16,714 bases of DNA from Methylovirgula sp. (lineage in GTDB: Bacteria > Pseudomonadota > Alphaproteobacteria > Rhizobiales > Beijerinckiaceae), in contig JASHVQ010000010.1 in assembly GCA_030044485.1 (NCBI GenBank), positions 1-16,714 of the forward strand, read 5' to 3'. Of this stretch, positions 314-13,451 are shown in pieces. The first letter of the stretch is position 1; every line of letters begins with the position of its first letter. Position numbers and translations under genes: made by a program. Below the pieces are notes generated by a model, which did no database searches, was not told where the DNA came from, and saw nothing but the letters and a program-made list of their open reading frames with translations.

Positions 314-985
314 CTAAGCTGTTGCAGCAGCCATTGCGCTGGCCTGAGCGGGGCAGGCCTCGAGCCGCACAAGATCGGCGCTGACCGCGACGCTGAGTGT
401 CAGGTTCGCGGCGCGCGCCACGAGCCCCGCGTAGAAGGGCTGGATTCCTTGCGCGTCGACCTGGTTATTTTCCGGCTTGCCGGCGAGCAGCTGCGGGACG
501 TGGCTCGCAAGCCTCGCATTGGCGCCCTTCGCCTCGACCTCGATCCGCGTGATCTGTTCGCCGCCGCACACTTTCACGCGGATCTCTCCGCCGCGCGGAA
601 TGGCGGCCGCGGCGATGAGGCACAGATTGAGTACGAGCTTCACCTTGTCCTTCGGCATGAGGACGCGCGGCACGTCCCATTCGAGTTTCGTACGGTCGTC
701 GGCGAGAAGCCCGCGCGCCACCTGTTCGGCATCGCCCGTGTCGATCGCCGCGCCGGCCGAGCCGGCCGCGCCGAAGGCGAGCCTGCAGAACTGCAGCCGC
801 GCCGAGGCGGTGCGGGCGCTCTTTTTGACGAGGTCGAGCGCGAATCCGCGCATCTCGGCATCTTTCTCTTCCTCGAGCACTTCGAGCCCGTTGACGATGG
901 CACCGACGGGGCTGATGACGTCATGGCAGACGCGCGAACAGAGAAGCGCCGCGAGGTCGAGGGGGTTGAGCGCGAATTCGGTCAT
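314..985 (-). CDS. chpT: Histidine phosphotransferase ChpT
   Basis: ChpT passes phosphate from the hybrid kinase CckA to the master cell-cycle regulator CtrA and to CpdR in alphaproteobacteria. The protein is 223 residues, close to the family length. The N-terminal helix carries LLCSRVCHDVISPVGAIVNG, the ChpT/DHp-like phosphorylation motif with His21. It is followed by the second helix (EVLEEEKDAEMRGFALDLV) and a degenerate HATPase-like C-terminal half without ATP-binding boxes, as known for ChpT. I chose the ATG at 985 because AAGGAA lies about six bases upstream and the protein then begins MTEFALNPLDLAALL. The open frame runs on to 1069, but that extension looks non-coding. cheA lies downstream on the same strand after 128 bp, so the two might be co-transcribed, though a separate cheA promoter is suggested by the CtrA-like box. 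The assignment is firm at family level. Confidence 0.92.
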   Translation of the reverse strand: MTEFALNPLDLAALLCSRVCHDVISPVGAIVNGLEVLEEEKDAEMRGFALDLVKKSARTASARLQFCRLAFGAAGSAGAAIDTGDAEQVARGLLADDRTKLEWDVPRVLMPKDKVKLVLNLCLIAAAAIPRGGEIRVKVCGGEQITRIEVEAKGANARLASHVPQLLAGKPENNQVDAQGIQPFYAGLVARAANLTLSVAVSADLVRLEACPAQASAMAAATA

Positions 986-1268
986 TTTTATTCCTTCGAG
1001 GGTCGAAGAGCGGGGCGAAAGCCGGGCTGCGCGGGCGCGAGCGGGCAAACGACCGCTGCGTTGCAGCACGCGAAGGCTTACGCGACCCCACCTGAAATCC
1101 GCACCTTAGACGCGGCGGATTAAAAACTGACGAATCACGAAAAATCTCGTTGTGGCTTCTAGTTGCACGTTGGCTCCTGGTTTGCAAATCGGAGCTTGGC
1201 AGGGGCGCCTAGACTTGAAACGCGGCCCAATTTGCCGCATGCAAAGCGGCCGCGACACCCGAGATCCT

Positions 1269-2129
1269 ATGCCCGTCAAGACGAGCCAAACTCACGATCG
1301 CCTCGGCCTCAATTACGATGCCGTCGCCGAGGTCTTCGCAGAACTCGCCTCGGCGGCCGGCGCCGCGGTCATGCGTTTCTACAAAGGCGACAGCAACGTT
1401 CAGACGAAGGCCGACCAAAGCCCGGTCTGCGATGCGGATGTCGCGGGCGAGGCCATCATTCTCGAAGGTCTCGCGGCGCACCTGCCGGATCTGCCGGTCA
1501 TATCCGAGGAGGCGGCCGCCAACGGCGCGGCGGCGCGGCTCGCCGATAGTTTCATCCTGGTCGATCCGATCGACGGAACGCGCGAGTTCTTGGCCGGGAA
1601 GGACGAATTCACCGTCAACATCGGGCTCGTCGTGAACGGCGAGCCGAAAGCCGGCGTCGTCTACGCGCCGGCGCTTGAACTGATGTGGATGGCCGGCAGG
1701 AAGCCCGCTTCCTTTTCGCTTCTTCCGGGCGCGAAATTGCCGCCCGCCGGCAAGCGCCACCGCATTCATGTGCGGCGTCCCGAATCGGACGGCCTGATCG
1801 CCTTGACGAGTTGGTCGCACACCGACCCGCGCACCTCGACCTTCCTTTCCAAACTGCCCGTCAAGGAGCGCCGTATGATCGGCTCTTCCTTGAAATTCTG
1901 CGCCATCGCCGATGGCTCCGCCGATATCTACCCGCGCTTCGGGGCGACCATGGAATGGGATACGGCGGCAGGCGACGCCATTCTGCGGGCCGCCGGCGGG
2001 ATCGTGCTCGCCCGCGACGGCCAGCCGCTTCGCTACGGCAAGAGCGCCGCGAAGTTCATGAACGGCTCTTTCGTCGCTTGCGGAGACCGCGCGTCGGTGC
2101 CGGCGCATCTCGGCGCAAGATTGGCGTAA
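1269..2129 (+). CDS. cysQ: 3'(2'),5'-bisphosphate nucleotidase CysQ
   Basis: CysQ removes the 3'-phosphate from PAP and PAPS, recycling the by-product of sulfate assimilation and sulfotransfer; it is a Mg-dependent enzyme of the inositol monophosphatase superfamily. The 286-residue protein has the family metal-binding set: PVISEE (Glu80-Glu81), LVDPIDGTREF (Asp99-Pro-Ile-Asp-Gly-Thr, residues 99-104) and the C-terminal EWDTAAGDAIL (Asp231). GTREF after the DPIDGT motif is typical of CysQ rather than of inositol monophosphatase proper. The ATG at 1269 (MPVKTSQ) gives the usual CysQ N-terminus; the frame is open upstream to 1152, with another ATG at 1240, but neither has a good ribosome binding site. 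The gene is divergent from chpT across a 283 bp gap in which I recognise no clear signal. Its stop codon overlaps the putative CtrA box of the following gene. Confidence 0.93.
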   Translation: MPVKTSQTHDRLGLNYDAVAEVFAELASAAGAAVMRFYKGDSNVQTKADQSPVCDADVAGEAIILEGLAAHLPDLPVISEEAAANGAAARLADSFILVDPIDGTREFLAGKDEFTVNIGLVVNGEPKAGVVYAPALELMWMAGRKPASFSLLPGAKLPPAGKRHRIHVRRPESDGLIALTSWSHTDPRTSTFLSKLPVKERRMIGSSLKFCAIADGSADIYPRFGATMEWDTAAGDAILRAAGGIVLARDGQPLRYGKSAAKFMNGSFVACGDRASVPAHLGARLA

Positions 2130-2141
2130 TTCTCCGTTAAC
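2126..2141 (+). promoter_or_regulatory. Putative CtrA binding box upstream of eipA
   Basis: The sequence is GTAA, seven bases, then TTAAC, matching TTAA-N7-TTAAC at 8 of 9 positions; it continues as TTAACCAT, a form also described for CtrA half-sites. It lies 55-70 bp upstream of the eipA ATG and overlaps the cysQ stop codon. In Brucella abortus eipA is reported to be directly activated by CtrA, which makes this match more believable than a motif alone. Binding in this organism is inferred. Confidence 0.58.
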
Positions 2142-2196
2142 CATGCTCGTTGAGAGTCGCGTTATCCGAAAGCACGCGCCATATCGGGAGGCGTCC

Positions 2197-2790
2197 ATGC
2201 GCGCATTTTCGCGTCGAGAAATTACCGCCAAACTGGCGTTGATTGCCGCCGCCGGCACGGCTCTGAGCTGGCCGCGTGCGGCGCGCGCCACGACCGAGGA
2301 CAATTCCAACCAGTTCAGCGGCGACGAGATCATCCGTGCCGGGCACCATTTCTTCGGGACGATCTCGCGCGGACTCGCGGAGGTCGTCGAGGCCGCGACC
2401 CGGCGCTGGGGTCGGCCGAACGGCTATATTCTGGGGCAAGAAGCAAGCGGCGCTTTCGTCGGCGGCCTGCGCTACGGCGAAGGCGTCATGTACACGCGCA
2501 ATGCCGGCGACCTTAAAGTCTTCTGGCAGGGACCGTCGCTCGGCTTCGATGCCGGCGCCGATGGCGATCGCACCATGATGCTCGTCTACGGCCTGCCGGC
2601 GGTCAACGCGGTCTTTCGCCGATTCGGCGGCGTCGACGGTTCGGCCTATTTCGTGGGCGGGTTCGGAATGACCGCCTTGACGGCCGACAATATCGTCGTT
2701 GTGCCCATCCGCACCGGGGTTGGGGCGCGATTTGGCCTCAATCTTGGCTATTTAAAGTTCACGCCGCACGCGACTTGGAACCCGTTCTGA
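2197..2790 (+). CDS. eipA: Envelope integrity protein EipA family (DUF1134), secreted
   Basis: This is a DUF1134 protein, the family of Brucella EipA, a soluble periplasmic beta-barrel needed for envelope stress resistance. The 197-residue protein opens with an export signal: MRAFSRREI, a hydrophobic stretch at about residues 11-24, and an Ala-Arg-Ala cleavage site near residue 31. The SRRE pair resembles a twin-arginine motif but lacks the full consensus, so Sec or Tat export is open. The mature part has the family features: FFGTISRGLAEVVE, GRPNGYILGQEASGAFVGGL, the GEGVMYT strand, and a C-terminal run ending GLNLGYLKFTPHATWNPF. The start at 2197 is supported by GGGAGG five bases upstream; an in-frame ATG at 2143 would put 18 odd residues before the signal peptide. 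It follows cysQ after 67 bp, with a CtrA-like box between them, and is followed by a possible terminator. Confidence 0.92.
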   Translation: MRAFSRREITAKLALIAAAGTALSWPRAARATTEDNSNQFSGDEIIRAGHHFFGTISRGLAEVVEAATRRWGRPNGYILGQEASGAFVGGLRYGEGVMYTRNAGDLKVFWQGPSLGFDAGADGDRTMMLVYGLPAVNAVFRRFGGVDGSAYFVGGFGMTALTADNIVVVPIRTGVGARFGLNLGYLKFTPHATWNPF

Positions 2791-2808
2791 GGGCTTTGCG
2801 GCAACCTG

Positions 2809-2828
2809 CCGGCACTTGGCCGGGTTTT
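2809..2828 (+). terminator. Possible rho-independent terminator after eipA
   Basis: CCGGC and GCCGG form a perfect 5 bp stem around the loop ACTTG, followed by GTTTTG. It sits 19 bp after the eipA stop. The stem is short and the T run has only four bases, so it is a weak candidate; the outer AACC/GGTT pairing could lengthen it with bulges. Confidence 0.4.
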
Positions 2829-2885
2829 GCTCTCGGCTTGCTTAAGTGCCATATTTGACGGCGAAAGACTGCCGGATAGAGCCGC

Positions 2886-4103
2886 GTGATCGAGCAAATC
2901 ATGATCTTCGCGCTCGGGTTCCTGCTTGCAGGGCTCGCGGCGCTGGCCTTCGCGCCCGTCTTCTGGCGACGCGCGAACCGACTGACGCGTCGTCGGCTCG
3001 AAACCCAGGTTCCCCTTTCCGTCCAGGAAATCCTCGCGGAGAGGGACCAATTGCGGGCCGAATTCGCCGTCGAACAGCGGCGCATCGAACTGCGCGCCGC
3101 GCAAGTGAACCTGGCGCATGCCGCCGACCGCAGCGAACTCGGCCGGCGCGCCGCCGAAGTCAGCGACCTGAAGGACCTGCTTGCTTCGAGCGCCGCCGAA
3201 AACCATGAATATGAGCTTGCGCTCGCCAACGTGCAGCGCGAGCTCGCCCAGGCGAATGCCGAACTAGGCGCGGCCAGCAAGGCGCTCTTCGACGCCGAAG
3301 CGCTTTACGAACGCAAGCAGTCGGAGCTGCTCGATCTTGGCAAGGCGCATGAAGCGATGACCATGCTGGCCGAGGAACGGCTTGCAAACCACGCCGCCGC
3401 CGATGCGCGCGCCGTCGGATTGGAATTGCGGCTCGCCGACGTCAGCCGCATGCTGCTCGAGGCGGAGAAGCGCTTCACCGAACGAACGGCGCAGGCCGCC
3501 AAGCTCAGCGACTCGCTCGCGCTTTCGCGCCGCCATCTCGAATTGAGCGAAAACAACGGCGCCGCGTTGCAGAGAAAATTGGACGCCGAGGCGGTGCGCG
3601 CCGCGGCCGTCGGCCTGGAGTTCGAGGCGCTGCGTGCGCAGCGCGACGAGGATCAGGGGAAGTTGCGCGCCCTGACCGCCAAGCTCGGCGCAAACCAAGC
3701 GGCGCTCGAGGACGCCGGCCAGCGCGAAGAAGAGATTCGCGCGCAGCGCGACCGGCGACTCGAGAAGGCGCGCGAGGCGGAGCGCAACTTGGCCGAGAAA
3801 TACGAGCGCCTGCAGTCCGAATATGCCGCGCTGCAGGGCGCCCTCGACGTCGCACGCCGGCGTTGCGAGGCGCTCGAATCCGAAATGGTCGAGCGCGGGT
3901 TGCGCCCCAAAAAGCCTGCCGAGGCCGAGGATGGATCGACGCCGCATCGCGACGGCAATGGCGGCTTCGCACATCCGCCGCGCGCCGGCGAACCTGCTGC
4001 GCCCGGCGCGGAGAGCGCAGCCGAAGCGGAAAGAATGCGTGTCGCGCGCCCGGCTGTGCCGGACGACGGCCCCGGCGGAAGGCGCGACCACCTCAGATCC
4101 TGA
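2886..4103 (+). CDS. Membrane-anchored long coiled-coil protein of unknown function
   Basis: I do not recognise a named family. The 405-residue protein has one N-terminal membrane helix (about residues 5-27) followed by Arg/Lys-rich residues (WRRANRLTRRRLE), so the bulk should be cytoplasmic. Residues of about 45-345 are almost entirely Ala, Glu, Leu, Arg and Gln in heptad-like order, with repeated ERDQLRAE- and REEEIRAQRDR-like segments, which predicts a very long coiled coil. The last 60 residues are Pro/Ala/Gly/Glu-rich and probably disordered. Similar 'anchor plus coiled coil' proteins are common in Hyphomicrobiales and are often misnamed as chromosome segregation ATPases; no ATP-binding motif is visible here. 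The start is a GTG at 2886; an ATG at 2901 is the alternative, and neither has a strong ribosome binding site. It lies 95 bp after eipA on the same strand, and the tRNA-Glu promoter begins just after its stop. A scaffold or envelope-associated role is only a guess. Confidence 0.75.
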   Translation: MIEQIMIFALGFLLAGLAALAFAPVFWRRANRLTRRRLETQVPLSVQEILAERDQLRAEFAVEQRRIELRAAQVNLAHAADRSELGRRAAEVSDLKDLLASSAAENHEYELALANVQRELAQANAELGAASKALFDAEALYERKQSELLDLGKAHEAMTMLAEERLANHAAADARAVGLELRLADVSRMLLEAEKRFTERTAQAAKLSDSLALSRRHLELSENNGAALQRKLDAEAVRAAAVGLEFEALRAQRDEDQGKLRALTAKLGANQAALEDAGQREEEIRAQRDRRLEKAREAERNLAEKYERLQSEYAALQGALDVARRRCEALESEMVERGLRPKKPAEAEDGSTPHRDGNGGFAHPPRAGEPAAPGAESAAEAERMRVARPAVPDDGPGGRRDHLRS

Positions 4104-4111
4104 GAGCGAAG

Positions 4112-4139
4112 CTTGCCGGGCTCTGCCTGGGCCTATAGA
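4112..4139 (+). promoter_or_regulatory. Likely promoter of the tRNA-Glu gene
   Basis: CTTGCC (4112-4117), a 16 bp gap and TATAGA (4134-4139) form a housekeeping-type promoter, and transcription would begin a few bases before the tRNA at 4153. CTTG-type -35 boxes are common in alphaproteobacterial stable-RNA promoters. The element starts eight bases after the stop codon of the coiled-coil gene, so the tRNA can be transcribed on its own. Confidence 0.5.
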
Positions 4140-4152
4140 AGGCGAGAGCGCC

Positions 4153-4228
4153 GCTCCCTTCGTCTAGCGGCCCAGGACGTCGCCCTCTCACGGCGAAAAC
4201 AGGGGTTCGAGTCCCCTAGGGAGCGCCA
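4153..4228 (+). tRNA. tRNA-Glu (anticodon CTC)
   Basis: This is a complete 76-base tRNA with CCA encoded. The acceptor stem GCTCCCT (4153-4159) pairs with AGGGAGC (4218-4224), followed by discriminator G and CCA. The anticodon stem TCGCC/GGCGA encloses the seven-base loop CTCTCAC, giving anticodon CTC, which reads GAG. The T arm is AGGGG-TTCGAGT-CCCCT, and the D arm has GTC/GAC pairing around TAGCGGCCCAG. The long APC/GGDEF/EAL gene converges on it, its stop lying 20 bp further on. No integrase or repeated tRNA end is seen nearby. Confidence 0.97.
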
Positions 4229-4248: not shown

Positions 4249-7200
4249 TCAAGCGGCGGCGACGGGCCTGCCGGAAATCGGCGGCCGGGAAGTCAGCAGC
4301 GGCGTGATCTCGGAGGCGGGCAAGGGTTTCGAATAGAGGTACCCCTGTCCGAAGGCGCAGCCGAGACGTCTAAGCTCTCTGGCTTCTTCGTAATTCTCGA
4401 TCCCCTCGGCGATCGCCTCCATTCGCAACCCCTTGGCCAGCGTCAGGATGGTGGTGACGACTTCTCTGGCTTCCGGCTTTTTCAAAAGATCGGCGACGAA
4501 GGATCTGTCGATTTTGAGATTGTCAAACGGAAAGCGGTGGAGATGGCCGAGAGAAGAATAGCCCGTCCCGAAATCGTCGATGCTCAGTTTTACGCCGATC
4601 GACTTGAGCTGCGACAATATGCTTGCGGCGCGTTGCGGATCGCCCATCGTGCAGCTTTCGGTCACTTCCAGTCGGATGGAGGCCGGATTGATCCTGGCTT
4701 CGTCCAAAACGAATTGCACATCGCGCGCGAGATTAGGTTCGGTAAATTGCCGGGGCGAAAGATTTACGCTCATGCTCAGATGCGGTGATTCGACGCGTTC
4801 CTGCCATGCGTACAACTGCCGGCAGGCTTCGCGGAGCACCCAAAATCCCAGCGGAATGATGATGCCCGTCTCTTCGGCGATCGAGATGAAATCGGCGGGG
4901 TGGACCAGGTCCCCGCCGGGCGTTTGCCAGCGAAGCAGCGCCTCGAATCCTTCGATTTTCTCGGTACGGAGCGATACGATCGGCTGATAGTGCAGCACAA
5001 ATTCGTTGTTGCTGAGTGCGCGGCGCAGTCTGGTCTGCAAATGCAAGCGCGCGGTCGCCTGGGCGTGCATCGAATCGTCGTAAATCTGCATCCGCGCTTC
5101 ACCGCGGCTCTTGGCGTAATACATCGCGAGATCGGCGTCTCGCAGAATATCGTCCGCGGCATTGTATGCCACGCAACTCGCGACGATTCCGATGCTGGCG
5201 GTGGCGTAAACTTCCTGACCTTCGACGACGAAGGGCGCCGAAAGCGCTTCCTCTATGCGCATCGCGGCGGCAATTGCATCTTCGGCTCCGTCGACCTCGG
5301 TGAGCAAGACGGTAAATTCGTCTCCTCCGAAGCGCGCCAGCATGTCGCTCACCGGCTCGCTGGTCATTGCGTGGCGTGAACGCTCCGTGCTGCGCAGCAG
5401 CCCGCGCAGCCGATCCGCAACCTCAAAAAGAAGGCCGTCGCCGGCGCCGTGGCCGAGGCTGTCGTTGACCCTTTTGAAGCCGTCCAGATCCAAGAAGAAC
5501 ACGGCGAAGTCCGTCGCCGCCCGCCCCTTTCTGGAAAGAGCCGCCTTGAGACGACGCATGAAGAAGGTGCGATTGGGCAAGCCGGTGAGAGGATCGTGCA
5601 ACGCGTCGCGAACCGCCTCTTCCTTGGCGCGAAGCAGTTCGGTCGCCAGCCGCTTTTCCTCTTGGATCGTGGTCGCCAGCGCATTGTTCGACGCGAGAAG
5701 CTGGGAGCGTGCCGCGCCGAGACCTTCGCGAGCCCGATCGAGCCCCATCGCGGCCAGCTTGACGCTCTGTTGCAAGGCGTTGAAGCTCACGGCCATCGCC
5801 CCAAGTTCGTCGCGCGAGTGGACCTCGACGGGGGTAACATCGGCGCAAGCGTGCGCGGCCTGCAAATTGCCTTCGCCCAAAGCATCCATCGCCCGCGCCA
5901 AATCCCGCACCGTGCCGTGCGCGAGCCGCTCCGCCGCTTCTTTAACCTCGTTGGCCGAGTGCGCGATCATGCCCGGCAGAACAAGGCCAACGCTGATTGT
6001 CAGGATCGCCACGAGGACGAAGATGTCCTCGAGTCCGACGACGAACACTTGGTTGTTGTCGGGAATGGCGCCGACGGCCAGCATGTAGCCTGCGGCGTCG
6101 AGCGCCAGAACGAGCAGCATAGCTCCCGTGAGCTTGACGTGCAGACTGCCGCCCAAGGGCCTCAGCCCGCGCCGCCAGCGATCCTCCAGTTTTCGCCATG
6201 CATAAAGCCCCGCTCCCGAATAGGCCATGAGCAGGCCGAATACGACGGTGGGCAAGCCGAACTGTTCGAATCCGAGCAGCGCGCTGCACCCCCAAACGCC
6301 GGCCGCGGCAAGCCCAAGTCCGACGGTGCCTTTGGGCGCGCGGAAAGGGCGAACCGCGTCGGGTGCGTCCCGGCGCAGCAGATAGACGGCCACGCTCGGG
6401 AGGCAAATTCCGATGAGATAGGTGAAGTTCGCGGCGGCAATCAGCCAAATCGGATCGCCGATGAGGAGAAAAAGGATCGCAAATCCCGCCGTGGCCAGCG
6501 TCGCGGCCCAAGGCGTGTCGGTCGGAAGGCGCAAGGCGAGGAAGCGCGGCGCAAGCCCGTCCTCCGAGAGTTGCGACATGGTCCGTGCCGCCCCGGCCAG
6601 CGGCTGCAACGTGCCGTGGAACATGTTGAACATCATGAAGCCGATGGCTGCCGACTTCGCGAAACTCCCGAAGACGGGCGCAAAGGTCGGGCCGAGAACT
6701 TCCAGCAGATCCCGCCCAAGCGCCGCCGGTCCCAAGGCGCCAAGCCAGATCAGCGGCAAGAAGGCGAAGTAGACGGCCGCCATGCCGGCGCTTGCCAGTG
6801 TCGCCCGCGGCACGTTGCGCGCCGGCGCAACCGTCTCGCCGACATGGCACGTAGCCGCTTCGAACGCGGGGGCGCCGAAGCCGATCAAATAGAGGCCCGC
6901 CATCATCGAGGTCAGCGCGCCAAACCAGCCGGGAAATGGCGCGGTCAAATGGAAGTCGAAGGCGCGCGCCCAATCCATGCCGCCGCTGAGGAGCGGCGCC
7001 AACATCGAGATGAACGCAAGACATGCCGAAGCCGCGGCGATCGGCAAGGCGAGATTCGCGACCCATCGGATGCCGCAAAGATTGACGCCGGTGAACAGCA
7101 GCACGAGCCCGCAGGCGATGACCGGAACCGGAATGCCGGGCAGGCACCATTGGTGGATGGCTGTTGCCGATAGGATCGCAGTCACGCCGCAGGTCGGGAC

Positions 7201-7572
7201 CCAGCCCCACCAATAGCAAACGCCGGCCAGTGCCGAGAGTATGGGGCTATAGCGGCGAAAGGCTCCCGTGCACGATGCCGCGATTCCGCCAACCCGGTCC
7301 GGCGACATCAGAACAAGCTCGACCCAGCCGGGTGCCGCGGCGTAGCTGAGCAGCAGGCCGACGATCAACAGGCCGACAGCGGCACTTCCTTGGCCGGGTA
7401 TGTTTCCCTGCCCGACGAAGAGCGCCGTGATGAGAAACAGCGACTGATTGCTGCCGCCCATGGCCAGGGCGCTCGTGCCCAGCCATCCGAGCCGCCGCGG
7501 ATGCGGTTTCGGCCCTAATTCTTCAGGATGACTTGCCGCAGATGTCCGTTGCCCGGACTTTGATTTGCCCAT
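4249..7572 (-). CDS. APC-family permease fused to HAMP-like, GGDEF and EAL domains
   Basis: The product is a 1107-residue fusion. Residues of about 25-460 form a full APC-superfamily amino acid permease with about 12 membrane helices; GFGAPAFEAATCHVGETVAPARNVPRA is not quoted in full here but resembles the family's conserved E-x-x-x-x-P-x-R-x-x-P-R loop (about 238-256). Two further helices (about 481-500 and 512-535) lead to a HAMP-like segment (about 536-605) and a coiled coil (606-655). The GGDEF domain (about 656-830) has DLDGFKRVND and intact RFGGDEF at 749-753, but the inhibitory site is PVSD rather than RxxD. The EAL domain (about 845-1095) keeps EALLRW, NLSP, EVTES, DDFGTGYSSL, LKIDRSF, AEGIEN and the GQGYLYSKP end, so phosphodiesterase activity is expected. 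The ATG at 7572 has GGGAGG ten bases upstream. I infer an amino-acid- or transport-gated c-di-GMP enzyme, comparable in idea to CbrA, a transporter-kinase fusion. The gene stands alone, divergent from the next gene over 222 bp. Confidence 0.9.
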   Translation of the reverse strand: MGKSKSGQRTSAASHPEELGPKPHPRRLGWLGTSALAMGGSNQSLFLITALFVGQGNIPGQGSAAVGLLIVGLLLSYAAAPGWVELVLMSPDRVGGIAASCTGAFRRYSPILSALAGVCYWWGWVPTCGVTAILSATAIHQWCLPGIPVPVIACGLVLLFTGVNLCGIRWVANLALPIAAASACLAFISMLAPLLSGGMDWARAFDFHLTAPFPGWFGALTSMMAGLYLIGFGAPAFEAATCHVGETVAPARNVPRATLASAGMAAVYFAFLPLIWLGALGPAALGRDLLEVLGPTFAPVFGSFAKSAAIGFMMFNMFHGTLQPLAGAARTMSQLSEDGLAPRFLALRLPTDTPWAATLATAGFAILFLLIGDPIWLIAAANFTYLIGICLPSVAVYLLRRDAPDAVRPFRAPKGTVGLGLAAAGVWGCSALLGFEQFGLPTVVFGLLMAYSGAGLYAWRKLEDRWRRGLRPLGGSLHVKLTGAMLLVLALDAAGYMLAVGAIPDNNQVFVVGLEDIFVLVAILTISVGLVLPGMIAHSANEVKEAAERLAHGTVRDLARAMDALGEGNLQAAHACADVTPVEVHSRDELGAMAVSFNALQQSVKLAAMGLDRAREGLGAARSQLLASNNALATTIQEEKRLATELLRAKEEAVRDALHDPLTGLPNRTFFMRRLKAALSRKGRAATDFAVFFLDLDGFKRVNDSLGHGAGDGLLFEVADRLRGLLRSTERSRHAMTSEPVSDMLARFGGDEFTVLLTEVDGAEDAIAAAMRIEEALSAPFVVEGQEVYATASIGIVASCVAYNAADDILRDADLAMYYAKSRGEARMQIYDDSMHAQATARLHLQTRLRRALSNNEFVLHYQPIVSLRTEKIEGFEALLRWQTPGGDLVHPADFISIAEETGIIIPLGFWVLREACRQLYAWQERVESPHLSMSVNLSPRQFTEPNLARDVQFVLDEARINPASIRLEVTESCTMGDPQRAASILSQLKSIGVKLSIDDFGTGYSSLGHLHRFPFDNLKIDRSFVADLLKKPEAREVVTTILTLAKGLRMEAIAEGIENYEEARELRRLGCAFGQGYLYSKPLPASEITPLLTSRPPISGRPVAAA

Positions 7573-7794
7573 GCCGGAGCAGCCTCCCGTCTAGGCTGCC
7601 AGCATCTCTGAAAGATTGAATCGGCCACAGCCCAAAATCGGCGGCGCCATTAGATAGCCGGGAGTTTTACGAAAGATCGAAACGGATGCGGAAAATTCTA
7701 GCGTTTCGCGAACTGCAGGAACCTCAATACAATCCAACACAGAAGTGTTATGATGCCGAACTAATATTGGCCCGCTCCTTTGGAGGACATCGAT

Positions 7795-8109
7795 ATGAAG
7801 CCCAATATTGTTGTTGTTGCGCTTGGACTCTGTGCCTTCGCCACTCTGGCGCCCGACAGCGCCCAAGCTTATCACGGATGGCACGGCGGCCATTGGGCAG
7901 GCGGTGGCTGGCACGGCGGCTATTGGCGCGGTGGCCGTTACTATGGCCCGGGATGGGGCTGGGGCGCGGCCGCGGCAGGACTTGCCGTCGGCGCGGCCGT
8001 CGGAGCAGCCACCGCCGCTCCATATTATGGCTACGGATATCCGGGATATGGTTATCCTGGGTGCCCCTACGGCTATCATTACTACGGCGGCTATTGCTAT
8101 CCGAATTGA
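7795..8109 (+). CDS. Small secreted Gly/Tyr/His/Trp-rich protein, function unknown
   Basis: The 104-residue protein starts MKPNIVVVALGLCAFATLA and has a clear signal peptide, probably cut after SAQA near residue 25. The mature part has three zones: HGWHGGHW-type repeats rich in Gly, His and Trp; an Ala/Gly hydrophobic stretch (AAAAGLAVGAAVGAATAA) that may be a glycine-zipper-like membrane or assembly segment; and a Tyr/Gly/Pro tail with GYGYPGYGYPG repeats and two Cys. The ATG at 7795 has GGAGG eight bases upstream; the TTG at 7780 would overlap that site. A TATGAT sequence (7749-7754) could be a -10 box, but no good -35 is seen. Such proteins are widespread in Hyphomicrobiales without a known job; a cell-surface, structural or metal-binding role is conceivable. 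The gene ends 13 bp before the stop of the converging large secreted protein. Confidence 0.8.
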   Translation: MKPNIVVVALGLCAFATLAPDSAQAYHGWHGGHWAGGGWHGGYWRGGRYYGPGWGWGAAAAGLAVGAAVGAATAAPYYGYGYPGYGYPGCPYGYHYYGGYCYPN

Positions 8110-8122
8110 GCGTCGAAACGCG

Positions 8123-9979
8123 CTAGGCGCGCGTCGGCCAGTGCCGCTCGTGAAACCAGGCGCGGTAGACGGTCATTTTGGCGCGTTGCGTCGCCGGCGC
8201 ATGCCGCTTGCACGTCGATGCCTCTTCGCTTCCCTCGGGCGCGCCCCAGCGTAGTTCGACGCAATCGTTGAGGTTGTAGGCCATTTCGAGTGCCGCGGCG
8301 CGATCGACCACGTCCTGAAGCGACAGCGTCCAGGCCGAGCCGTCGCTGCGCGTATAGGTGAACTTGCGCGCTGCAAGCTCGGCGGCGAGCGTGCTCTGCA
8401 ATTCGGCCTTCACCTGCGCGACGCTCTTGCCACCGGGCATCGCGTAGCGCTCCGGCCGCGCCGCTACCCGGTCCGGAAAGCCGGTCACCACGTCGATTGC
8501 GATCAGCATGCGAAAATCGCGCGCCGGCGTCGCGAAATCCTCCCATGCGCCGTTGGTCTCGAAGATCGACGCGCCGTCCGGCATGTCGGCGTCGCCGGCC
8601 GCGCTTGCCTGATACTTGCGCCCGTTTTCGACGGCCGTGACGCGCGTCTTCACTTGTTCTTCGAGCGATGTAATCGCATCTTCCATGGCGAGCGCGGGAT
8701 CGAGCGGCTGCGGCGACATCACCTCGTCCATCCGATCGTAGAAATCCTCGGCCGCGAGCTGCGACTGCTCGAGCGAATAATCCCCATATTGATCGTTCTT
8801 CGCGATTTCGACATTTGTTTGCCGCCGCAAGGCGCCGTTCGCGGCGCGTATGATCGGCCTGAAGCGCTTGAAACCGGGGCTGCCGAGCGCGGGATCGTGG
8901 ACGAAGAGGAAATTGCCGCGCCAGAAACGTTTGCGCGTAACGGTGCCGTCGGGCTCCGCGTCGACCGCGAGAAGGACGCCCGCCGCGCTGCCGACCTGCG
9001 GCACGCGCCGCACCAACATCAAAATGTGTCCGTAGGGATCGGCATATATGGTGCCGGGGCGCAGCGCCTCTTGCGCGAGCGGCACGGGATAGAAGTCGGT
9101 GTTGTTGTCGCTGGCCGAGGTCCGTCCATTGCCGGACTGGACGGCGTCGGCGAGCATCGGCAGGAAGTCCCGGAACGACTCGCCGAGCCCCGCTTGACTG
9201 GGCGCGGCGCTCGCCGAGCTGAACCATTGCGAGCACCTGGGCGGCCGGCCTTCGTTGCCGCGCGAGCAATGCGAATAGCCGAAGGGCAGGCCCATTTTGA
9301 ACGCAAAATAAGCGCGCAACATGTAGGGAAGCTTGGCGCAATCCGGGCGGAAGACGATGCCGATCTCGTCCTCGCGCACGCCCAAATAGTCAAAGAGCAT
9401 GTTGCGCGAGCGGTCGCGCAAGACGTCTTGCAGCGTCGGCCAGGAAAGCTCGGTGTCGAGCGGCCCGTCGAAGAGCTTTTGGATCCATGCCGAGTAAAGA
9501 TTTTCCGTCGCCCGGTCCCACGCATTGCGCAGCGGCCAGACGCTTCCCGGCGTCGCGCGCGGCGCGGGCGGGGGCTCGCCGCGCACCGCGATGTCGCGCG
9601 TGATCATCCTGCAGCCGGCGGGCGCCGCGTCGAGGGCCAGCGTCGCGTGCCATGTTCCCGCGGCCGGCGCGGCGACCTCGGCGAACCAGAAATAGGGAGG
9701 GCCGCCTTGCAGGTCGGAAGATTTGGCCGCGACGCTTCCGTCCGGGGCGATCAGCGACAGCTCGCCGCGCAGCGGCTTTTCTGCGGCAAACAGGACGCGC
9801 AACGGCGCCCCCGTCCAAGGCGCGATCGGCGCGGGCAAGACCGCGATTCCGACAGCCGCTTCGCAGCCGCCGGAGGAATCCTGGGCGCGCGACTCCTCGG
9901 CCGAGAAAAACATCAGCAAAATCGCCATGAAAAGCGACAGTGCCAAGTCGGCAACAATGAACCGGCGCCCGAGAAGCAA
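8123..9979 (-). CDS. Large secreted protein with Ig-like part and NlpC/P60-like Cys/His pattern
   Basis: I know no named family for this 618-residue protein. From the TTG at 9979 it starts LLLGRRFIVADLALSLFM (first residue read as Met), a signal peptide with a likely cut after SRA near residue 32. TTG is preferred because GGGAGGGAG ends three bases before it; the open frame runs to an ATG at 10099, but those 40 extra residues look non-coding. About residues 50-125 read as a beta-sandwich (PLRVLFAAEKPLRGELSLIAP, then GTWHATLAL). Residues 212-232 (PDCAKLPYMLRAYFAFKMGLP) and 308-322 (RPGTIYADPYGHILM) resemble the Cys and His motifs of NlpC/P60 papain-like folds, giving Cys214 and His318, with His361 (FLFVHDP) as a possible third residue. 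The C-terminal half is unassigned. A cell-wall or peptide-directed hydrolase in the periplasm is my inference; a catalytically dead relative is as likely. The gene is single, divergent from the DUF302 gene. Confidence 0.72.
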   Translation of the reverse strand: MLLGRRFIVADLALSLFMAILLMFFSAEESRAQDSSGGCEAAVGIAVLPAPIAPWTGAPLRVLFAAEKPLRGELSLIAPDGSVAAKSSDLQGGPPYFWFAEVAAPAAGTWHATLALDAAPAGCRMITRDIAVRGEPPPAPRATPGSVWPLRNAWDRATENLYSAWIQKLFDGPLDTELSWPTLQDVLRDRSRNMLFDYLGVREDEIGIVFRPDCAKLPYMLRAYFAFKMGLPFGYSHCSRGNEGRPPRCSQWFSSASAAPSQAGLGESFRDFLPMLADAVQSGNGRTSASDNNTDFYPVPLAQEALRPGTIYADPYGHILMLVRRVPQVGSAAGVLLAVDAEPDGTVTRKRFWRGNFLFVHDPALGSPGFKRFRPIIRAANGALRRQTNVEIAKNDQYGDYSLEQSQLAAEDFYDRMDEVMSPQPLDPALAMEDAITSLEEQVKTRVTAVENGRKYQASAAGDADMPDGASIFETNGAWEDFATPARDFRMLIAIDVVTGFPDRVAARPERYAMPGGKSVAQVKAELQSTLAAELAARKFTYTRSDGSAWTLSLQDVVDRAAALEMAYNLNDCVELRWGAPEGSEEASTCKRHAPATQRAKMTVYRAWFHERHWPTRA

Positions 9980-10114
9980 TTGCTCCCTCCCTAACCGCAA
10001 TCGAAACGATATTGCGAAAGCTTTGGCTGAATGATGGCAGACCGCCTCGGCCCGCGATTGCCGGGAAACAAAGGCACACGGGGGCGGCGAATATGTCAAA
10101 TGCCCAGCCGCCGG

Positions 10115-12582: not shown

Positions 12583-12704
12583 AAGATGCCTGGCTTCGGC
12601 GCGGCGTTGCTTAACAATTGCGACATTTCGCAAGACGCAGATCGGATTGCAATTTTGCGCCGAGAGATCGAGACTTAGCTTCCTCCGAAGCTCGGGAGCA
12701 ATCC

Positions 12705-13451
12705 ATGCGCATCGAAGACGTTCTTCACTTGCCCTCCATGCCGCTCGCCGGGCCGAGCTATCCGAAGGGGCCGTACCGTTTCGTCAACCGCGAATACATG
12801 GTGATTTCTTACGAGACCGATCCCGACATCGTTCGCGCGCAATTGCCGGAGCCGCTCGAACCCGTCGACCGGCCGCTCGTTCATTACGAATGGATCCGCA
12901 TGCCGGATTCCTCAGGCTTCGGAGATTATACCGAAAGCGGCGTGGTGATCGCCTGCCGCTACCAAGGCGAAGAGATGAACTTCGTCGCGCAGATGTATCT
13001 CGACGACGATCCGCCGATCACGGCCGGGCGCGAAATCTGGGGCTTCCCGAAGAAATACGCGCATCCCAAGCTCGAGATCGTCAAGGACACGTTGACGGGA
13101 ACCTTGGGTTACGCCGGCCAGCTCGTAGCCATGGGCACGATGGCCTATAAACACGAAAGCATGGCCGGCAATGGCGAGCTGACCAAGGCCATCCTCACCA
13201 AGACACAGGTCAATCTGAAGCTCATTCCAGGCATCGACGGCAAACCCGCCATATGCCAGCTCGTGTCCTACAATCTCACCGACGTAAGTGTGAAGGGCTC
13301 GTGGATCGGGCCGGGGCGCCTGCATCTTATCCCGCACGTCAACGCCCCGGTGGCCGATCTGCCGGTGCACCGCATCGTCGCCGCGCATCACTTCATCGCC
13401 GATTTGACGTTGCCCTACGGGCGCGTGCTCTACGATTACCTGAAACGCTGA
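12705..13451 (+). CDS. adc: Acetoacetate decarboxylase
   Basis: The enzyme decarboxylates acetoacetate to acetone and CO2 through a Schiff base. The 248-residue protein is of full family length. It carries GREIWGFPKKYAHPKL, where Lys116 and Lys117 match the paired lysines of clostridial Adc (the first forms the Schiff base, the second lowers its pKa). Family segments with likely active-site acids and Arg are also present: KGPYRFVNREYM near residue 29 and DYTESGVVIACRY near Glu77. The ATG at 12705 (MRIEDVLHLPSMPLAGPSYP) has GGGAG seven bases upstream; the frame is open to 12618 but the extra part looks non-coding. The gene shares its promoter region with the divergent patatin gene and ends 15 bp from the converging RND gene. 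With intact lysines it should be active, though acetoacetate decarboxylase-like proteins with other substrates exist. Confidence 0.93.
   Translation: MRIEDVLHLPSMPLAGPSYPKGPYRFVNREYMVISYETDPDIVRAQLPEPLEPVDRPLVHYEWIRMPDSSGFGDYTESGVVIACRYQGEEMNFVAQMYLDDDPPITAGREIWGFPKKYAHPKLEIVKDTLTGTLGYAGQLVAMGTMAYKHESMAGNGELTKAILTKTQVNLKLIPGIDGKPAICQLVSYNLTDVSVKGSWIGPGRLHLIPHVNAPVADLPVHRIVAAHHFIADLTLPYGRVLYDYLKR

What the first reader, a model, noticed from the sequence alone, without database searches (positions are those of the whole stretch)
4249..7572. Amino acid permease fused to GGDEF and EAL: a transporter-shaped c-di-GMP receptor
A complete 12-helix APC-type permease is followed, in one unbroken frame, by two more helices, a HAMP-like linker, GGDEF and EAL. 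Transporter domains used as sensors are known for histidine kinases (CbrA, a solute symporter-kinase fusion), but this layout with both c-di-GMP domains is unusual. The lack of any neighbouring transport genes fits a sensor (or a transporter whose flux is read out). It suggests that uptake or binding of an amino acid or amine sets c-di-GMP and thus motility or biofilm.
Basis: partly seen in the sequence, partly recalled or inferred. Interest (0 to 1): 0.78.

Follow-up and report, generated by a model that had tools for sequence, protein, structure and literature searches.

The report
Permease-shaped sensor controlling c-di-GMP enzymes
A bacterial protein that looks like an amino-acid importer is welded to enzymes that make and destroy a signalling molecule, and close relatives of the same importer-shaped part are welded to several other kinds of signalling machinery in unrelated bacteria, so it is probably a shared plug-in sensor that, as far as I could search, has not been named.

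Summary
One intact 1107-codon frame (4249-7572, minus) encodes a 12-helix APC-fold permease, two further helices, HAMP, GGDEF and EAL, with the catalytic residues of both enzymes present. The permease-to-HAMP block is one conserved unit: a scan of one genome per species gave 109 relatives; 80 were kept, 57-85% identical, eight phyla by title. It carries different outputs: histidine kinases (57 loci), GGDEF-EAL (18), GGDEF-HD-GYP (1); four frames are short, broken or cut. On the sensor tree the output changes at least 8 times (3 forced by well-supported branches alone), and one GGDEF-EAL clade is rejected. No permease-only member was seen in the genomes sampled. Most likely it is a transporter-derived sensor: a solute binds the permease, helices 13-14 and HAMP relay this, and c-di-GMP turnover changes. 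Ligand, transport and direction of the effect are unknown. CbrA and Ks-Amt5 are precedents, so it is a new variant of a known kind. Literature searches of open papers listed no description.

The parts
4249..7572 (-). complete gene, 1107 aa: APC permease - TM13/14 - HAMP - linker - GGDEF - EAL
6172..7503 (-). APC-fold (LeuT-fold) permease domain, residues 24-467, 12 TM helices by my assignment
   Evidence: Pfam AA_permease; AA_permease_2 over cut-off in the genome search though not listed for the window protein by hmmscan; AlphaFold model; Foldseek and VIA-align
5962..6144 (-). TM13 and TM14, residues 477-537, outside the part spanned by most superposed solved transporters (22-474); mean modal identity 0.79 and 0.86 in 80 sensors
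5761..5910 (-). HAMP domain, residues 555-604
   Evidence: Pfam HAMP 36.7 bits; HAMP in 75 of 79 relatives
5623..5760 (-). linker between HAMP and output, residues 605-650, inside the conserved block in most relatives; coiled coil is inferred, not computed
   Evidence: blastp block reaching residues 625-650 in most relatives
5095..5604 (-). GGDEF domain, residues 657-826; RFGGDEF and metal-site residues intact; PVSD where the inhibitory site would have RxxD (motif recalled, read by eye)
4324..5031 (-). EAL domain, residues 848-1083; E877, R881, N937, E969, D999, D1000, K1020, E1056, Q1076 all present
4153..4228 (+). tRNA-Glu (CTC), 20 bases beyond the gene's 3' end; limit of conserved gene order in the genus (probable insertion site, not part of the protein system)

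Best explanation
A transporter-derived membrane sensor with a c-di-GMP output. The 12-helix APC permease serves as the ligand-binding sensor; a solute entering the pocket around the broken helices TM1 and TM6 shifts the permease between its states. TM13-TM14, HAMP and the linker, probably in a dimer, carry this to the GGDEF-EAL pair and change net c-di-GMP turnover, hence motility or attachment. The permease-TM13/14-HAMP block is a general plug-in sensor that elsewhere drives histidine kinases or, in one case, a GGDEF-HD-GYP enzyme. Shown: domain order, fold, intact catalytic residues, conservation, several changes of output, rarity, patchy spread. Inferred: ligand binding, dimer, direction of coupling. 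My guess, with about even odds, is that the net activity is phosphodiesterase, because the EAL residues are complete in 17 of the 18 other GGDEF-EAL members (the exception, L095, has a gap there) while two of the 18 have changed GGDEF motifs.
For: Same block with different outputs: of 79 C-terminal parts, HAMP 75, HATPase_c 56, HisKA 47, HisKA_2 5, HisKA_3 2, REC 37, GGDEF 19, EAL 18, HD_5 1. On the sensor tree the output needs at least 8 changes, and holding the 19 GGDEF-EAL sensors together costs 134 log-likelihood units (p-AU 7.7e-8). No permease-only member seen: 43 genomes known to hold the block gave 45 hits of 857 bits or more, every one in an open frame of 863 aa or longer; in 288 Verrucomicrobiota-centred genomes the only family hit scored 981 bits and the next best 52; in the family sample the only short frames are two pieces of one genome, G502, and both stop at contig ends. 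Mean modal identity in 80 sensors: TM1 .83, TM2 .84, TM6 .85, TM13 .79, TM14 .86, against TM4 .61, TM5 .65, TM11 .65 (TM3 .88, TM8 .81, TM10 .86 are inflated by the search patterns). Against the window protein the sensor is 58-85% identical in the 18 other GGDEF-EAL members, their enzyme parts 33-69%. Catalytic residues intact. Receiver domains in 20 of 132 adjacent frames; no listed non-signalling family in more than 3.
Against: No ligand, binding or activity data. Well-supported tree branches alone force only 3 changes for GGDEF-EAL and 4 for kinases, and outputs are far more clustered on the tree than shuffled labels, so re-joining is repeated but not frequent. TM7, part of the LeuT-fold core, is not especially conserved (.73). 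The pocket keeps APC features (broken TM1 and TM6, a TM6 acidic residue, N382 and Y385), so real transport is not excluded. In CbrA, a close precedent, the fused domain does transport histidine, histidine did not change kinase activity, and removal of the domain left target-gene activation (PMC7096432, passages), so a transporter-like domain need not be the signal input. Both enzyme domains look active, so the net direction cannot be read from sequence. The fetched set was chosen by short peptide patterns and cut to the best 80 of 109. Searches list hits only to E 1e-30 and searches scored at most 3-5 candidates a genome, so distant or extra members could be missed.
Confidence: 0.7

Rival explanations
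1. A true transceptor: the permease imports its solute and the transport cycle itself (flux) is read out by the fused enzyme domains.
Against: No permease-only relatives among the hits, the contig-end pieces of G502 apart. No partner catabolic family recurs. The Lys in TM5 that several APC transporters use for coupling (role and position recalled) stands over Ala in the sensor consensus in the profile alignments; AdiC is recalled to lack it too, so this is weak.
Confidence: 0.2
2. Reverse signalling: the nucleotide state of the GGDEF-EAL part gates a working permease, so c-di-GMP controls uptake.
For: Geometry would allow it. Both domains bind nucleotides by family knowledge. No call supports it directly.
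Against: 57 relatives carry histidine kinases and one a GGDEF-HD-GYP on the same sensor, so the part common to all is the sensor, with outputs exchanged. Response regulators lie next to several of the loci.
Confidence: 0.06
3. Decayed or accidental fusion without function.
For: Rare and patchy (1 of 398; 7 of 298); no match in 9 of the 11 genomes of the genus, six of them under 90% complete.
Against: dN/dS 0.096 in the permease and 0.17-0.18 in the enzyme domains; catalytic residues intact; same order in 18 further loci.
Confidence: 0.03

Closest known systems
CbrA of Pseudomonas (SLC5-STAC-PAS-histidine kinase)
   Same: A whole LeuT-type transporter fused in one chain to a signalling output (PMC13022988, PMC7096432, passages read).
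   Different: Sodium/solute-symporter (SLC5) family and STAC linker there; APC/LAT family, two extra helices and HAMP here, with c-di-GMP enzymes as well as kinases in the family.
Ks-Amt5, ammonium transporter-histidine kinase of Kuenenia
   Same: A transporter recruited as the sensor of a fused enzyme (PMC5764959, abstract, outline and passages).
   Different: Amt fold, no HAMP, kinase output. It binds but does not translocate its ligand; nothing is known here.
5TMR/LytS sensors and ECF S-components
   Same: A transporter fold used as an exchangeable sensor with PAS, kinase, GGDEF and EAL outputs (PMC11109136, passages).
   Different: An unrelated six-helix fold (recalled to be unrelated to the LeuT fold).
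LysP-CadC of E. coli
   Same: A lysine-specific amino acid permease informs a signalling protein (PMC6978683, passage).
   Different: Two separate proteins; here permease and output are one chain, with HAMP between.
LAT/SLC7 and AdiC-type APC transporters
   Same: Fold and topology of residues 22-473.
   Different: 13-20% sequence identity; TM13-14 lie outside the region spanned by most superposed chains.
TMAO permease Tmp (NF053774)
   Same: The named model with the best E-value among the 25 sensors scanned, matching all 25; shares the TM6 Glu and N..Y in TM10.
   Different: 93.6 bits for the window protein against a cut-off of 690; 20-26% identity, hardly nearer than another APC permease in the same alignment (19-23%).

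Membership tests
APC superfamily, LAT/AdiC-like permeases (Pfam AA_permease / AA_permease_2) | profile match over the curated cut-off | tested here: met
   AA_permease 39.1 bits, cut-off 24.6. AA_permease_2 90 bits, cut-off 27, in the genome search, but hmmscan lists only AA_permease for the window protein. In the 25 sensors of A2: AA_permease_2 in 23, AA_permease in 21.
APC superfamily, LAT/AdiC-like permeases (Pfam AA_permease / AA_permease_2) | LeuT fold with broken TM1 and TM6 | tested here: met
APC superfamily, LAT/AdiC-like permeases (Pfam AA_permease / AA_permease_2) | substrate transport | not testable with these tools
   needs an uptake assay
TMAO permease Tmp (NF053774) | curated equivalog cut-off of 690 bits | tested here: not met
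   93.6 bits
SLC5-STAC sensor kinases (CbrA type) | SLC5 (solute/sodium symporter) domain | tested here: not met
   Pfam at E 0.001 lists AA_permease, HAMP, GGDEF and EAL only
SLC5-STAC sensor kinases (CbrA type) | STAC linker | tested here: inconclusive
   no STAC among the Pfam or NCBIfam matches shown, but I did not check that either library holds a STAC model; a HAMP match stands in its place
HAMP-coupled receptors | HAMP domain between last TM helix and output | tested here: met
   36.7 bits, residues 555-604; 75 of 79 relatives
GGDEF-EAL dual c-di-GMP enzymes | catalytic residues of both domains | tested here: met
   all listed residues present in the window protein (positions named from family knowledge)
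GGDEF-EAL dual c-di-GMP enzymes | measured cyclase or phosphodiesterase activity | not testable with these tools
   needs an enzyme assay
fused transporter-sensors ('transceptors') | ligand-dependent output activity | not testable with these tools
   ligand unknown

The most novel reading that the evidence does not exclude
An unnamed APC-fold sensor domain, 14 helices plus HAMP, that no longer exists as a free transporter, reads one and the same small solute with a nearly invariant pocket in at least eight phyla, and is passed between lineages and re-joined to histidine kinases, c-di-GMP enzymes and an HD-GYP enzyme: a general nutrient sensor for environmental bacteria.
Probability: 0.4. Interest if true: 0.78.

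Novelty: new variant of a known kind. Interest (0 to 1): 0.62.

Why it matters
If right, a whole amino-acid-type transporter has become an exchangeable sensor with its own relay helices, as happened separately with SLC5, Amt and S-component folds. Because natural relatives carry the same sensor on kinases and on c-di-GMP enzymes, the question whether a transporter-shaped sensor needs transport in order to signal becomes testable with ready-made natural chimeras. One identified ligand would give a function to the 109 or more genes of this family.

Tried and rejected
Ligand by nearest relative: the TMAO permease model is the best named hit, but identity to Tmp-like permeases is 20-26%, against 19-23% to another APC permease in the same alignment, so no ligand is claimed.

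Ligand by gene neighbourhood: 705 neighbouring frames, called mechanically, were clustered: three clusters span four or more loci, two of receiver-domain proteins (13 and 9 loci) and one of RND efflux proteins (4, the window's included, 61 to 5327 bases from the sensor gene in the three others). 132 adjacent frames were scanned with Pfam (the first 25 of 163 families are listed): outside signalling domains the highest counts are 3 (AAA and IstB-type ATPases); a porin family, OprB, has 2.

Second fusion in the same genome: a permease hit in an 808-codon frame (L002) reads as an ordinary permease behind a long open stretch that I take to be spurious.

Direct repeat of the tRNA-Glu end as an integration mark: one match only in the window, the tRNA itself. 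No riboswitch over the gathering score: Rfam finds only the tRNA.

One search took wrong frames for at least L120, L122, L126, L130 and L002-L004 of the 13 permease loci; its mixed alignment was discarded. One search uses five others (L121, L124, L125, L128, L129) and leaves out L123, which looked right too.

Rows dropped before counts: L109 (frame broken early) from the C-terminal scan and the trees; L006 (sensor identical to L035); L046, L072 and L108 (no output readable). Taxon labels come from record titles, read by me; L044, titled only 'Bacterium M00...', was counted with the alphaproteobacteria because its sensor sits beside that of Mesorhizobium L040; the four titled only 'proteobacterium' or 'Proteobacteria' were left out of the taxon-change count. 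The 57 rows labelled kinase in the tree were labelled by motifs and elimination; the Pfam scan gives 56 HATPase_c matches in 79 and L076 is cut by a contig end.

Literature search concerned the TMAO permease, not the fusion.
Full report

THE LARGER FAMILY. A scan of one genome per species with residues 1-549 found 109 relatives and kept the best 80, 57-85% identical by best segment. The common block runs on through HAMP to about residue 625-650 in most. By record title, as I read them, the 80 loci comprise 17 alphaproteobacteria, one 'Bacterium M00' that I count with them, 17 beta- or gammaproteobacteria, 4 proteobacteria not further named, 27 Verrucomicrobia, 9 actinobacteria, and one each of Eremiobacterota, Myxococcales, Herpetosiphonaceae (Chloroflexi), Omnitrophota and Dormiibacterota: eight phyla. 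Most are metagenome bins, so single assignments may be wrong, but titles without the MAG label include a Verrucomicrobia complete genome, Mesorhizobium, Paraburkholderia kururiensis, Roseiarcus fermentans, Glaciimonas immobilis, Methylocapsa palsarum and Actinoplanes palleronii. L035 has the same sensor sequence as G006's copy. L060 and L077 lie in one genome. A search of plasmid records found one more, on a 1.09-Mb replicon of Paraburkholderia sp. PREW-6R.

OUTPUTS. Pfam on 79 C-terminal parts: HAMP 75, HATPase_c 56, HisKA 47, HisKA_2 5, HisKA_3 2, response regulator 37, Hpt 10, GGDEF 19, EAL 18, HD_5 1, and PAS models up to 18. L107 has a GGEEF motif and an HD-GYP motif. The frames of L046 and L076 run into contig ends; L072, L108 and L109 are short or broken. 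The sensor tree (81 rows, quick IQ-TREE) needs at least 8 changes of output and 12 of taxon group, alphaproteobacteria and beta/gammaproteobacteria being counted apart. Counting only well-supported branches, at least 3 changes are forced for GGDEF-EAL and 4 for kinases, and outputs are more clustered than in any of the shuffles. Forcing the 19 GGDEF-EAL sensors into one clade is rejected (p-AU 7.7e-8; 77 rows). So the block was joined to different outputs more than once, and its spread across phyla points to transfer between lineages; I did not compare it with a species tree.

A TIGHT, RARE FAMILY WITH NO PERMEASE-ONLY MEMBER SEEN. A profile of 25 sensors found it in 1 of 398 genomes of the phylum (the window's own), 7 of 298 of the family including the window's own, and 1 of 288 in a Verrucomicrobiota-centred sample (the centre itself). 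In 43 genomes known to hold it there were 45 copies: 41 genomes with one, 2 with two. In one search, which listed hits to E 1e-12, the one family hit scored 981 bits and the next best, ordinary permeases, at most 52. Searches listed hits only to E 1e-30; there every hit scored 857 bits or more except a 137-bit piece in G502. All hits lie in frames of at least 863 aa, except two in G502 (537 and 608 aa); both of these stop at contig ends (5281 of 5283 and 5564 of 5565). Searches scored at most 3-5 candidates a genome.

WHERE SELECTION ACTS. Across 80 sensors, mean modal identity is high in TM1, TM2 and TM6 (.83-.85) and in TM13 and TM14 (.79.86), low in TM4, TM5 and TM11 (.61-.65), middling in TM7, TM9 and TM12 (.73-.74). 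TM3, TM8 and TM10 are also high (.81-.88), but peptide patterns that picked the loci lie there, so those values are inflated. Residues such as G39, G40, N42, Q43, E238, H243, N382, Y385 and D516 are constant in at least 97% of them. Against the window, the other 18 GGDEF-EAL members are 58-85% identical in the sensor but 33-69% in the enzymes. Against L035, dN/dS is 0.096 in TM1-12, 0.18 in GGDEF, 0.17 in EAL, with dS of 1.1-1.4, near saturation.

CATALYSIS. Of 20 rows aligned, the EAL residue set is complete in the window and in 17 of the 18 others with EAL; the exception, L095, has a short frame and a gap there. The GGDEF motif reads GG(D/E)EF in 18 of 20 rows and is changed in L085 and L086. 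This leans towards phosphodiesterase as the constant activity, but it does not settle it.

SURROUNDINGS. ChpT, CysQ, EipA, an unnamed 405-aa frame and tRNA-Glu (CTC) keep their order in all 6 genus relatives in which EipA was found. In the four of these with about 8 kb or more of fetched sequence beyond the tRNA, none of the window's genes on that side, the sensor included, was found there. In G006 the sensor lies on another contig than this block. The gene therefore sits at a variable site beside a tRNA, which fits acquisition by transfer; no direct repeat of the tRNA end was found in the window. Among 132 adjacent frames of the 80 loci, receiver domains recur (20) and no listed non-signalling family matches more than 3; wider clustering shows RND efflux proteins near four of the sensor genes, the window's included.

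HOW IT PROBABLY WORKS. The permease pocket binds a solute; the change of state passes through TM13-14, HAMP and the linker to the GGDEF-EAL pair. Architecture, conservation and exchange of outputs are shown; binding, coupling and direction are inferred. CbrA shows that a fused transporter can still transport, and that its output can work without it (PMC7096432, passages); Ks-Amt5 shows that one can bind without translocating (PMC5764959, outline and passages). Which applies here cannot be told from sequence.

NOVELTY. Ten literature searches (number 54 on the TMAO permease), limited to PubMed Central papers under open licences, listed no paper on an APC permease fused to a kinase or to c-di-GMP enzymes; two searches showed only the first 20 of 217 and 12 of 586 papers. 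I read passages or outlines of six papers (PMC11109136, PMC13022988, PMC7096432, PMC5764959, PMC5845226, PMC6978683), none whole. Subscription papers and architecture databases were not searchable, so 'not described' is a limited claim. The kind of thing (a transporter used as a fused sensor) is known; this fold, linker and range of outputs are, as far as I could see, a new variant.

Noticed in passing
window 314-4228: ChpT, CysQ, EipA, an unnamed 405-aa frame and tRNA-Glu keep their order in 6 of 6 genus relatives with EipA; beyond the tRNA the gene content differs, a variable site.
   Followed up: partly
window 12618-13451: The acetoacetate decarboxylase gene, 8.4 kb past the tRNA here, lies about 20 kb past it in G006 and about 36 kb past it in G005, so the stretch between varies in length.
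   Followed up: partly
window 8123-10099: A 658-aa frame without any Pfam or NCBIfam match at E 0.001, present in 5 of 11 genomes of the genus including the window's own.
   Followed up: no
window 7780-8109: A 109-aa frame rich in Gly, Tyr and Trp, without a Pfam or NCBIfam match at E 0.001, divergent from the sensor gene.
   Followed up: no
window 7579-7599: By eye, a short inverted repeat (GCAGCC / GGCTGC) just upstream of the sensor gene's start; its right arm overlaps a GGGAGG that could be the ribosome-binding site.
   Followed up: no
L060 and L077: Two sensor copies in one verrucomicrobial genome, with different kinase types judging by motifs only.
   Followed up: partly
L107: The one relative whose output has GGEEF followed by an HD-GYP motif, so both EAL and HD-GYP enzymes occur behind this sensor.
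   Followed up: partly
L120-L125, L128: TMAO permease genes over the curated cut-off in 6 of 60 relatives sampled, three of them in the window's genus.
   Followed up: no
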